From positions 248,001 to 312,000 of the forward strand of contig NZ_SWKP01000007.1 in the NCBI RefSeq assembly GCF_005871165.1: a DNA stretch of 64,000 nt, in the 5' to 3' direction. This document shows, piece after piece, positions 35,265 through 36,991 of the stretch (its first letter is position 1; the number at the start of each line of letters is the position of its first letter). Position numbers and translations under genes: made by a program. Origin of the DNA: Maricaulis alexandrii. GTDB taxonomy: Bacteria; Pseudomonadota; Alphaproteobacteria; Caulobacterales; Maricaulaceae. The notes beneath the pieces were generated by a model. That model was not told the origin of the DNA and searched no databases. It saw nothing but the letters and a program-made list of their open reading frames with translations.

Positions 35265-35848
35265 TCGCCCCATTTGTGGTTAATGGGCAACACCGCGATT
35301 TTTTAGCAACTTTGGGAGTTGATCCCGGCCGCGAGCTGGCGCATTACCCGCGCCCTTCGCTGAGCCGTGGCTCGTGAGACCACACCGGCGCGGTGGGCCC
35401 TGCCCGTCCCGTGTTCCGGATCGGCGAATTGCTTGGATAGCTAAACGGTAAAGCACATGATTGCGGTTCATGAATTTCGGGGTTCGAGTCCCCGTCCAAA
35501 ATTCCAAACTCCTCAATTGGTTGCGAACCAAGTTGTATCCGGCTGCCAGGAGCGTTCGCGCCCCTGTTCGACCGTGACCGTGCGTGAGCCTGCTTACGCC
35601 CTGTCACACCCGTCAGCCCGGCAGACGGCACATGCGCTTTGCGGTGTGCAGGATACCGGCTTCGGGAAAGAGCCTGAGGGCTCGCTGACCGGGAGAGATC
35701 GCGCCGCCTGACGGCCATCTCTCCTCGCGGCGGGTCCCTCTAGGCCGGGACCCGTCGTCTGAATGCACACCCCGTGCGTGTTCCGTCGAATGGTCCTGGC
35801 AGTCCTGCCAAGCCCTTTTCAACGCCAACACAAGAAAGGCCTAGAACA
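35265..35848. other. 584-base gap with structured RNA, upstream of slipin
   Basis: No plausible protein gene. It contains the tRNA-like element (below), a TTGGTTGCGAACCAA hairpin (35518-35532), and later hairpins such as GGGTCCC/GGGACCC near 35733-35755 and GGAGAGAT/ATCTCTCC near 35692-35722. The density of stable pairing suggests a transcribed leader or RNA genes. Confidence 0.7.
35411..35545 (+). ncRNA. tRNA-mimicking RNA, candidate bacterial Y RNA (YrlA-like)
   Basis: Every tRNA element is present with correct spacing: acceptor-like TTGGA/TCCAA (35433-35437, 35495-35499), TA linker, D arm GCT/AGC with a nine-base loop holding GG (35440-35454), a perfect 5-bp anticodon-type arm with a 7-base loop (35456-35472), a 5-base variable loop, and a T arm CGGGG-TTCGAGT-CCCCG (35478-35494). 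But the top acceptor pairs are mismatched, no CCA follows, and the formal anticodon would be GCG (Arg), which bacteria rarely use. Instead the ends continue as a helix: GGCGAATTG (35423-35431) with CAATTGGTT (35514-35522), and CCGGAT with ATCCGG outside. This is how Y RNAs of the YrlA type carry a tRNA-like module on a stem. Confidence 0.6.
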
Positions 35849-36991
35849 ATGATCTACAAGACGGCCGTTTTGGCCGAACATGAACGCGGAGTTCTGCTGC
35901 GCGATCAAACCGTCATCGACCTGGTGAAGCCGGGCCGGCACCGCTGGCTCGACCCGTGGGACCGCCTGCGCCTGGAAATCTTCGACACCGACCGTGTCGT
36001 GATGGACAGCACTTGGGCCAACCGCATCCTGCGCCAACATCCGGACCTGGCCGGCGACGACTTCGTCTTCGTCCGCCCGGAGGCCGGACAATTGGCGCTC
36101 ATCATGCTGGACGGCGCGCCCTACACGGTCGTCGCCCACGGGATGAACCGGGCCTTCTGGACCGTGATGCACGATCTCGATGTGGAGATGGTGGATCTCG
36201 CCGAAGCGGACCGGATCGATCCGCGCCTGGCCGATCGCTGGGCTGTCGCCGCAGGCACGTCCATCGTTCGGGCCATGGTCGGAACGCGGGAATCCGGTCT
36301 GCTCTACGTGGACGGGGCGCTGCGCGAACAGCTCGCCCCGGGACGTCACGCCTTCTGGGCGGCGGACCGGAGCGTCCGGGTCGAGGTCGTCGATCTGCGG
36401 GAAACCGCCCTGGACGTGGTCGCACAGGAAGTCCTGACCAAGGACCGGGTCACCATCCGGCTCAACCTGACCGCCTTCACCCGGATCACCGATCCGGTGG
36501 CGCGGGCAACCGGGCTGAGCGATGCCGAAGGGCATGTCTACAAGCTGATCCAGTTCGCGGCGCGTGAAGCCGTGGCGGGCCGGACGCTGGACACGCTGCT
36601 GCGGGATCGCGTGGAGATCGACCGGGAGATCACGGCCCATGTCCGTGAGCGCCTGGCCGAAACCGGGATGGCCGTCTCCGATCTGCGGATCAAGGATGTC
36701 ATCCTGCCCGGTGACATGCGCGAGATGCTGAACAAGGTGGTGGAGGCGGAGAAGGCCGCCGAAGCCAATCTGATCCGGCGTCGCGAGGAAACCGCGGCAA
36801 CGCGGTCCCTGCTCAACACGGCGCGGCTGATGGATGACCATCCCGGCCTGATGCGCCTGAAGGAGCTGGAAGCGCTGGAACGGCTGACCGAGAAGGTCGG
36901 ACGGATCGACGTCCACCAGACGTCCGAAGGGGCCGGACTGCCGGCCCTGCTGGAAACCCTGATGGGCCGCACCAAGACGGACACCGTCTAG
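35849..36991 (+). CDS. Slipin (SPFH/band 7, stomatin-like) protein
   Basis: A 380-residue SPFH protein. Residues 1-110 are a slipin-type N-terminal region (VLAEHERGVLLRDQTVIDLVKPGRHRW), followed by the band 7 domain (about 165-310) with VLTKDRVTIRLNLTAFTRI and the KLIQFAAREAVAGRTLDTLLRDR helix; the C-terminal coiled coil (VVEAEKAAEANLIRRREETAATRSL) mediates oligomerisation. No membrane helix is evident, so it probably associates peripherally. ATG at 35849 follows an AAAGG site. Slipin genes occur near Rsr/RtcB RNA-repair genes in some bacteria, which fits the tRNA-like RNA upstream. Confidence 0.88.
   Translation: MIYKTAVLAEHERGVLLRDQTVIDLVKPGRHRWLDPWDRLRLEIFDTDRVVMDSTWANRILRQHPDLAGDDFVFVRPEAGQLALIMLDGAPYTVVAHGMNRAFWTVMHDLDVEMVDLAEADRIDPRLADRWAVAAGTSIVRAMVGTRESGLLYVDGALREQLAPGRHAFWAADRSVRVEVVDLRETALDVVAQEVLTKDRVTIRLNLTAFTRITDPVARATGLSDAEGHVYKLIQFAAREAVAGRTLDTLLRDRVEIDREITAHVRERLAETGMAVSDLRIKDVILPGDMREMLNKVVEAEKAAEANLIRRREETAATRSLLNTARLMDDHPGLMRLKELEALERLTEKVGRIDVHQTSEGAGLPALLETLMGRTKTDTV

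What the first reader, a model, noticed from the sequence alone, without database searches (positions are those of the whole stretch)
35411..35545. A complete tRNA cloverleaf that is not a tRNA, upstream of a slipin gene: candidate Y RNA
Seen: all tRNA arms with exact spacing (D arm 35440-35454, anticodon-like arm 35456-35472, T arm 35478-35494 with TTCGAGT loop), yet acceptor positions 1-72 and 2-71 are mispaired, no CCA follows, and the formal anticodon GCG is one bacteria hardly use. The helix instead continues outward (GGCGAATTG with CAATTGGTT, one G-G mismatch and two G-U pairs; then CCGGAT with ATCCGG). Known: YrlA-type bacterial Y RNAs carry a tRNA-mimicking module on a stem bound by the Ro60 orthologue Rsr, and genes for Rsr, RtcB and, as I recall, slipins can cluster. 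Inference: this may be a Y RNA of an alphaproteobacterial RNA-repair or RNA-quality system with slipin as a partner.
Basis: partly seen in the sequence, partly recalled or inferred. Interest (0 to 1): 0.85.

Follow-up and report, generated by a model that had tools for sequence, protein, structure and literature searches.

The report
Slipin-linked RNA with changeable anticodon arms
Upstream of a bacterial scaffold-protein gene lies a conserved RNA carrying transfer-RNA look-alikes whose anticodons change from species to species while the rest stays fixed, which suggests a decoy against toxins that cut transfer RNAs.

Summary
The cloverleaf is real (ARAGORN; Rfam tRNA 50.9 bits), with acceptor pairs 1-72 and 2-71 broken and no CCA. 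The outward helix is not conserved in two related species. It is not a YrlA Y RNA: no RF02553 match, no TROVE gene in the genome. It is the tRNA-mimic part of a leader RNA (about 350-450 nt by conservation) that accompanies this slipin subfamily in the window's class and beyond. Of 113 slipin loci with readable upstream DNA, 103 have two T arms in tandem (controls 0 of 113, 4 of 112, 0 of 77) and 9, the window included, have one. A free anticodon-like hairpin often follows (46 of 73; shuffles 0.9). In 33 Bradyrhizobium loci the anticodon is hypervariable (0.515 differences per site) between near-invariant stems (0.059). The window and two congeners carry GCG, TTT and ACG in the same arm. Outside the class, 14 of 16 loci have rtcB beside slipin. 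I favour an RNA cofactor of slipin with exchangeable anticodon arms that decoy or report tRNA-cutting toxins; that mechanism is inference (about 0.45). By my recall, Burroughs and Aravind (2016) already noted SPFH proteins with a 'novel tRNA-like molecule'; the paper is not held, so unchecked.

The parts
35319..35347 (+). Promoter-like -35 TTGATC (35319-35324) and -10 CATTAC (35342-35347), 17 nt apart; inferred and weak
   Evidence: Read, positions. My own sigma70 scan did not choose this pair in the window; it rests on the same place and spacing in G001 (TTGATC-17-CATACC, sequence) and on TTGCAA-17-TATTAG at a comparable place in most Bradyrhizobium loci.
35353..35422 (+). Conserved leader with hairpin and near-invariant GGCGC and GTGTTCC boxes
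   Evidence: 35-sequence alignment A3, whose members were picked by the second box; 97% identical to G001. Start and end are approximate.
35431..35502 (+). tRNA-like domain (proximal type, T2), formal anticodon GCG; acceptor stem open at 1-72 and 2-71
35461..35467 (+). Anticodon loop TTGCGGT, the variable element (CTTTTAA in G001, CTACGAA in G002)
35517..35531 (+). Free anticodon-like stem-loop TTGG(TTGCGAA)CCAA (ASL3)
   Evidence: position; class-wide enrichment. In G001 this place holds no clear U33 loop; in G002 TGTG(CTTGAAA)CACA can be read.
35541..35720 (+). Conserved 3' domain with the GATACCG motif (35652-35658)
   Evidence: 91% identical to G001; motif present in 44 of 76 non-Bradyrhizobium loci (4.5 expected) and 36 of 36 Bradyrhizobium-group loci. 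Borders are approximate.
35721..35848 (+). Rest of the slipin 5' region, 98% identical to G001
35849..36991 (+). Slipin (SPFH/Band_7) protein, 380 aa
   Evidence: Pfam PF01145 E 2.6e-25; AlphaFold model mean pLDDT 88.7

Best explanation
The finding is one domain of a conserved, presumably non-coding RNA that accompanies a slipin subfamily. The RNA has a leader, one or two tRNA-like domains, often a free anticodon stem-loop, and a 3' domain. In the window's class it looks transcribed from a housekeeping-type promoter (inferred); in six loci of other classes it sits behind a sigma54-type box in front of slipin and rtcB. Mechanism (inferred): leader and 3' domain anchor the RNA to slipin, a member of a family that forms oligomers, and the exchangeable anticodon arms present bait for ribotoxins that cut tRNA anticodon loops. 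The bait would absorb the nuclease, and the cut RNA would be resealed by RtcB where present or act as a damage signal. Shown here by sequence: the RNA-slipin pairing, the architecture, the open acceptor of the proximal domain, the variable anticodons. Not shown: expression, binding to slipin, cleavage, protection.
For: Pairing: 103 of 113 slipin loci with readable upstream DNA have two T arms 58-95 nt apart and 112 have at least one; the same test finds tandem arms in 0 of 113 on the opposite strand, 4 of 112 in slipin coding DNA and 0 of 77 further upstream. ARAGORN alone finds sense-strand tRNAs 278-772 nt upstream in 66 of 77 loci with at least 1000 nt upstream. Not working tRNAs: in the proximal domain, pairs 1-72 to 7-66 form in 52, 40, 41, 57, 99, 101 and 99 of 112 loci; 31 anticodons occur in 100 seven-nt loops, 17 of them with A34 other than ACG, which bacteria rarely use (recalled); CCA in 14 of 112. 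Anticodon arms as payload: 34-36 vary at 0.515 per site against 0.059 in their stem, 0.105 in the leader and 0.288 at slipin third codon positions (33 loci); U33 is kept in 80 and purine 37 in 96 of 100 loops. Free arm: 46 of 73 loci against a shuffle mean of 0.94 (maximum 4) and 5 of 216 control windows, with 25 different closing stems and 27 anticodons. RNA-repair context: RtcB within 1.5 kb in 14 of 16 loci outside the class, sigma54-type boxes in 6 of these. Hughes et al. 2020 suggest the YrlA tRNA-like domain could competitively inhibit an anticodon nuclease (PMC7790460, passage).
Against: No transcript, binding or cleavage data. RtcB is not obligatory: 3 of 8 slipin genomes in the class sample have it, against 45 of 379 others; none of the 8 same-class loci of the phylum sample has it within 1.5 kb. 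Anticodon variation ranks 3rd and 5th of 384 three-nt windows, but other top windows are plain linkers, so relaxed constraint cannot be excluded by rate alone. In the E. coli and Citrobacter relatives the RNA is cut down to leader, T arm, hairpin and 3' domain, without anticodon arms, so slipin can do without the payload. A lone T arm is weak evidence: the same test finds at least one in 41 of 112 slipin coding stretches. The rule for a canonical free loop was set after seeing the data. In Salmonella, YrlA was not cleaved by the anticodon nuclease (PMC7790460).
Confidence: 0.45

Rival explanations
1. Y RNA-like scaffold: the RNA tethers slipin to nucleases, ligase or damaged RNA, and the tRNA mimics serve to look like tRNA to partner enzymes; the anticodon is simply unconstrained.
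For: A leader-like GTGTTCCG box, a T arm and a GATGCCGG-like stretch remain in E. coli, where the anticodon arms are gone. Rsr/YrlA occupies the analogous place in other rtc operons (L012, L015).
Against: The loops keep U33 and purine 37, and a separate free anticodon arm with its own varied anticodons is present; an unconstrained loop would need neither.
Confidence: 0.25
2. Cis-acting sensor: the tRNA-like leader controls slipin (and rtcB) expression, for example through cleavage of the arms by a ribotoxin or through processing by RNase P and RNase Z.
For: The T arms lie upstream of and on the same strand as slipin; the last 128 nt before the start codon are 98% identical in G001.
Against: Distance to the start codon is large and variable; no switch between alternative folds was identified (not tested systematically).
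Confidence: 0.2
3. Stress tRNAs: the domains are real tRNAs supplied under translational stress, as in the Anabaena cryptic tRNA operon, co-regulated with rtcB and a slipin.
For: Anabaena TrcR represses the trn operon and rtcB, and its deletion raises slipin alr0740 42-fold (PMC10272220, passages). Contig L134 has 14 ARAGORN tRNAs and an HNH-like ORF before a proximal-type domain and this slipin. The distal domains often have good acceptor stems, and CCA in 55 of 103.
Against: Proximal domains have open acceptor stems and rarely CCA; distal domains have 5-, 6-, 8- or 9-nt anticodon loops in 60 of 103; 17 of 100 proximal anticodons have A34 other than ACG; free arms cannot be tRNAs.
Confidence: 0.08
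4. A decayed tRNA gene or integration-site remnant that happens to lie before slipin.
For: Low tRNA score within the genome.
Against: Conserved position and architecture; compensatory changes in stems; closer to its slipin-linked homologues (0.77) than to any of 40 host tRNAs compared (at most 0.69).
Confidence: 0.01
5. YrlA-type Y RNA bound by Rsr.
For: A tRNA-like module in an RNA-repair setting.
Against: No RF02553 match and no TROVE match in the genome.
Confidence: 0.01

Closest known systems
SPFH/Band-7 module with a 'novel tRNA-like molecule' in RNA-repair loci (Burroughs and Aravind 2016, NAR 44:8525; abstract recalled, paper not held)
   Same: SPFH protein, cognate tRNA-like RNA, RNA-repair neighbourhood
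   Different: I recall nothing there on tandem domains, a free anticodon arm, hypervariable anticodons, the leader and 3' domain, or a stand-alone form; this could not be checked
YrlA/YrlB Y RNAs with Rsr in rsr-yrlBA-rtcBA operons
   Same: Tandem tRNA-like RNAs next to a scaffold protein in rtc operons (YrlB's likeness to tRNA is recalled)
   Different: Different protein (TROVE versus SPFH), no RF02553 match in the window, different leader, free anticodon arm, variable anticodons
Anabaena cryptic tRNA operon (trn, L-array) with rtcB and slipin alr0740 under TrcR
   Same: tRNA genes, rtcB and slipin respond together to loss of TrcR (PMC10272220, passages)
   Different: A 26-gene tRNA operon on a megaplasmid (abstract), with rtcB and, by its locus tag, slipin elsewhere
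Bacillus cereus pseudo-tRNA tRNA-Other
   Same: tRNA-like RNA not used in translation (PMC3399842, abstract in listing)
   Different: The abstract shown names no slipin and no tandem or free anticodon arms

Membership tests
YrlA Y RNA | Match to RF02553 | tested here: not met
   No match in the window at gathering, nor in 35265-35860 at E up to 5; the same model finds YrlA pairs in L012 and L015
YrlA Y RNA | Rsr/Ro60 (TROVE) in the genome | tested here: not met
   0 matches to PF05731 in G000
YrlA Y RNA | tRNA-like module | tested here: met
YrlA Y RNA | Rsr-binding stem | not tested
   Not looked for; no Rsr found
Functional elongator tRNA | Complete 7-bp acceptor stem with CCA | tested here: not met
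   1-72 and 2-71 mispaired, no encoded CCA; same trend in 112 proximal domains. CCA could be added after transcription.
Functional elongator tRNA | Scores as a tRNA | tested here: met
   ARAGORN; RF00005 50.9 bits
Functional elongator tRNA | Anticodon conserved between orthologues | tested here: not met
   GCG, TTT and ACG in three congeners
Functional elongator tRNA | Aminoacylation and ribosome use | not testable with these tools
   Needs experiment
SPFH protein plus tRNA-like RNA of RNA-repair loci | SPFH/Band_7 protein | tested here: met
   PF01145 E 2.6e-25
SPFH protein plus tRNA-like RNA of RNA-repair loci | Cognate tRNA-like RNA upstream | tested here: met
   Window; tandem arms in 103 of 113 readable loci
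SPFH protein plus tRNA-like RNA of RNA-repair loci | RNA ligase in the neighbourhood | tested here: inconclusive
   RtcB within 1.5 kb in 14 of 16 loci outside the class and, as a distant form, within 5 kb in 9 Bradyrhizobium loci; in the window's genome only on another contig
Membrane-anchored stomatin/slipin | N-terminal hydrophobic hairpin | tested here: not met
   A 19-aa window with hydropathy 1.6 or more starts in the first 60 residues in 1 of 42 aligned slipins, anywhere in 8 of 42; a crude test

The most novel reading that the evidence does not exclude
A hypervariable poly-anticodon RNA: a conserved RNA chassis bound to an SPFH oligomer, carrying two tRNA mimics and a free anticodon arm whose anticodons are rewritten between species under an arms race with anticodon-cutting toxins, so that the RNA is a changeable molecular decoy and sensor for the RNA-repair system.
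Probability: 0.35. Interest if true: 0.92.

Novelty: new variant of a known kind. Interest (0 to 1): 0.77.

Why it matters
If right, bacteria keep a dedicated RNA whose anticodon arms are swapped like lock blanks to intercept tRNA-cutting toxins. That would help explain why rtc-type repair operons carry tRNA mimics beside scaffold proteins (Rsr, slipin) and would give these slipins a molecular partner. The window's RNA matches no Rfam family beyond tRNA at gathering, and the six E. coli chromosome regions I fetched carry no RNA feature there. The idea is directly testable: the anticodons predict which toxins should be intercepted.

Tried and rejected
YrlA membership: rejected. Outward helix: rejected, not kept in two congeners; the 135-nt stretch does not fold unusually well. 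Copy of a host tRNA: rejected. Obligatory RtcB: rejected; in the smaller relatives sample all 5 slipin genomes have RtcB against 8 of 26 others. Sigma54 as a general promoter: strong boxes (at least 13.5 of 15.5) in 6 loci only (L122, L123, L124, L126, L129, L130). The promoter scan did not pick the window's proposed pair, so that promoter is an inference. The leader model R1 finds the leader at E below 1e-4 in 5 of 8 slipin-bearing relatives and in 0 of 53 without; but three of those five (window, G001, G044) were in the model's own alignment, leaving G056 and G002 as independent hits, and two weak hits (G046, G010) in slipin-free genomes have no tRNA nearby. The class search with R1 scored only 12 candidates per genome and missed slipin-bearing genomes, so it says nothing. 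VIA-align was unavailable. Foldseek also hits Major Vault Protein (E about 1e-10, ranks 16-18); a vault-like RNP is an idea I did not test. Phage records: one weak match.

Limits of the counts. The tRNA parser is my own and maximises pairing, with bonuses for 7-nt loops and U33, so those counts lean upward. Left out of the 117 loci: own-genome duplicates (L001, L003, L101), L002 (G001 again), L005 (contig starts just upstream) and L006 (slipin broken). Of the 117, L032, L043, L086 and L115 lack readable upstream DNA (a T loop is seen at the very edge of L032) and L108, a partial weaker match that may be another SPFH gene, has none: hence 112 of 113. One search used 73 loci: 69 of 76 non-Bradyrhizobium loci with parser score of at least 22, minus L128 (near-duplicate of L127), plus 5 Bradyrhizobium. 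One search used 33 of 35 chosen Bradyrhizobium loci; L050 and L076 lacked the exact anchor. Many loci are related, so counts are not independent events.

Literature. No paper in the held library has both 'slipin' and 'tRNA-like'; 57 hold 'slipin' and 'tRNA', and of the 30 listed only PMC10272220 is bacterial. Passages seen by term search only: PMC10272220, PMC9938897, PMC7790460, PMC13086221, PMC7824862, PMC11237479, PMC6514570. PMC3399842: abstract start in a listing. Burroughs and Aravind 2016: recalled only.

Full report
Observation. The window holds one tRNA-like gene, 35431-35502, called tRNA-Arg(GCG) by ARAGORN and RF00005 at 50.9 bits. Acceptor pairs 1-72 and 2-71 are mismatched and no CCA follows. 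The genome has 42 tRNA matches, including Arg ACG, CCG, CCT and TCT. The claimed outward helix is not conserved: in the congeners G001 and G002 its arms do not co-vary, and the stretch folds no better than shuffles (z -0.54). The 3' arm of that helix can form a hairpin, TTGG(TTGCGAA)CCAA, at 35517-35531. The window is probably from Maricaulis: a contig of the congener G002 has the same length, 72,805 bases, as a named Maricaulis contig carrying the same broken slipin (inference).

Not a Y RNA. RF02553 does not match at gathering or at E up to 5. The genome has RtcB on another contig but no TROVE match. Two congeners do have TROVE-RtcB loci with tandem YrlA, so the negative is informative.

The RNA accompanies slipin. 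The downstream gene is a Band_7/SPFH protein. A search of 61 relatives found it in 8. In the five of those whose upstream DNA I could then read besides the window's (G001, G023, G028, G044, G056), tRNA-like elements lie upstream of slipin with different anticodons. One scan gave 80 named loci, the best of a capped list; class and phylum samples gave the slipin in 8 of 387 and 25 of 397 genomes. In the combined 117 loci, 103 have two T arms 58-95 nt apart, 9 have one (the window and G001 among them) and 5 have none; of those 5, four lack readable upstream DNA and L108 is a partial, weaker match. Controls: tandem arms in 0 of 113 on the opposite strand, 4 of 112 in slipin coding DNA and 0 of 77 in DNA 1100-2000 nt upstream; a lone arm is commoner by chance, in 8, 41 and 8 of these. 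ARAGORN alone finds sense-strand tRNAs 278-772 nt upstream in 66 of 77 loci with at least 1000 nt upstream, and 4 tRNAs elsewhere in the 80 loci.

Architecture. (a) A leader with a hairpin and near-invariant GGCGC and GTGTTCC boxes (alignment of 35 picked by the second box); a looser box test finds it in 51 of 76 non-Bradyrhizobium loci (1.4 expected) and 36 of 36 Bradyrhizobium-group loci. (b) A distal tRNA-like domain, with CCA in 55 of 103 but an anticodon loop of 7 nt in only 43 of 103. (c) A proximal domain with good anticodon and T arms and an acceptor often reduced to about three pairs: positions 1-72 to 7-66 pair in 52, 40, 41, 57, 99, 101 and 99 of 112. (d) A free stem-loop with a 7-nt loop of anticodon form, in 72 of 112 loci against 1.6 expected, and in 46 of 73 loci of a set thinned of Bradyrhizobium, against a shuffle mean of 0.94 (maximum 4) and 5 of 216 control windows further downstream; 25 different closing stems and 27 anticodons. 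The rule for the loop form was set after seeing examples. (e) A 3' domain with a GATACCG-type motif, in 44 of 76 (4.5 expected) and 36 of 36. In the proximal domain all five anticodon-stem pairs are standard in at least 72 of 73 loci, with 9-44 two-sided changes each (my parser favours pairing).

Variable anticodons. In 33 Bradyrhizobium loci the mean pairwise difference per site is 0.515 at proximal positions 34-36, 0.406 in the proximal loop and 0.433 in the distal loop, against 0.059 and 0.070 in the anticodon stems, 0.059 in the proximal T arm, 0.105 in the leader, 0.089 in the 3' domain, 0.104 in the free-arm loop and 0.288 at 35 third codon positions of slipin. So in this genus the free arm is not hypervariable. 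Close loci such as L083, L090 and L091 (2.5-4% apart in leader, 3' domain and third positions) carry ATGTGAA, CTGCTAA and CTATGAA. Next to the window, leader and 3' domain are 97% and 91% identical to G001, but the anticodon loop matches at 1 of 7 positions and the stretch holding the free arm at 21 of 38; the three congeners read GCG, TTT and ACG. Across 100 seven-nt loops there are 31 anticodons; U33 is kept in 80 and purine 37 in 96. Other fast windows in the RNA are plain linkers, so rate alone does not separate diversifying selection from relaxed constraint; the kept loop form argues against simple decay.

Context. In 14 of 16 phylum-sample loci outside the window's class, RtcB (60-69% identical) lies within 1.5 kb, against 0 of 8 in the class; in 9 Bradyrhizobium loci a distant RtcB lies within 5 kb. 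Six loci have strong sigma54-type boxes before the RNA. In the class sample RtcB occurs in 3 of 8 slipin genomes and 45 of 379 others; in the relatives sample in 5 of 5 and 8 of 26. It is a frequent, not a fixed, partner. In Pseudomonas aeruginosa an SPFH gene in the rtc locus is in print (PMC13086221, passage). In Anabaena, slipin alr0740, rtcB and a cryptic 26-gene tRNA operon respond together to loss of TrcR (PMC10272220, abstract start and passages). In E. coli, 1617 of 5426 genomes hold at least 80% of a stretch with the RNA region, slipin and a nucleotidyltransferase gene, with a reduced RNA lacking anticodon arms.

Mechanism. I commit, with confidence of about 0.45, to an RNA cofactor of an SPFH scaffold whose exchangeable anticodon arms act as bait for anticodon-cutting toxins, upstream of RtcB-type repair where present. 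The conserved RNA-slipin unit itself I hold at about 0.95. A competitive-inhibitor role was suggested for YrlA's tRNA-like domain by Hughes et al. (PMC7790460, passage), who also found that YrlA itself was not cleaved. Expression, binding, cleavage and protection are all untested here.

Novelty. I recall, but could not read, that Burroughs and Aravind (2016) named SPFH/Band-7 modules with a 'novel tRNA-like molecule' as RNA-repair cofactors. So the pairing as such is probably known, and I file this as a new variant: tandem domains, a free anticodon arm, hypervariable anticodons, a conserved chassis, and a stand-alone form without rtcB beside it.

Noticed in passing
L134:191-4074: Viral-collection contig with 14 ARAGORN tRNAs (Arg GCG among them) and an ORF that looks like an HNH endonuclease (1211-1807, named by eye), then a proximal-type tRNA domain (2455-2527), a free anticodon arm GCAGG(CTGAAAC)CCTGC, a GGATACCG motif and this slipin; reminiscent of the Anabaena tRNA array beside an HNH gene (PMC9938897, passage).
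   Followed up: partly
window 35849-36991: The slipin model matches Major Vault Protein as well as stomatin in Foldseek (E about 1e-10, ranks 16-18); a vault-like RNP link is untested.
   Followed up: no
L012 and L015: Two congeners carry tandem YrlA RNAs next to TROVE and RtcB genes, a separate system from the slipin RNA.
   Followed up: partly
L182 and L006: In congener G002 the slipin gene is interrupted and its pieces lie at two contig ends; an IS-type transposase sequence (named by eye) abuts the break.
   Followed up: partly
L176, L188-L193: The E. coli slipin locus (1617 of 5426 genomes with at least 80% of the query, lab strain W included) has a strong sigma54-type box and a reduced, unannotated RNA with a T arm only.
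   Followed up: partly
window 35778: A second GTGTTCCG box about 71 nt before the slipin start, also in G001.
   Followed up: no
L046, L049, L050, L056, L070, L076, L083, L090, L091: A distant RtcB homologue (about 31-42% identity) within 5 kb of the slipin RNA in these Bradyrhizobium loci.
   Followed up: no
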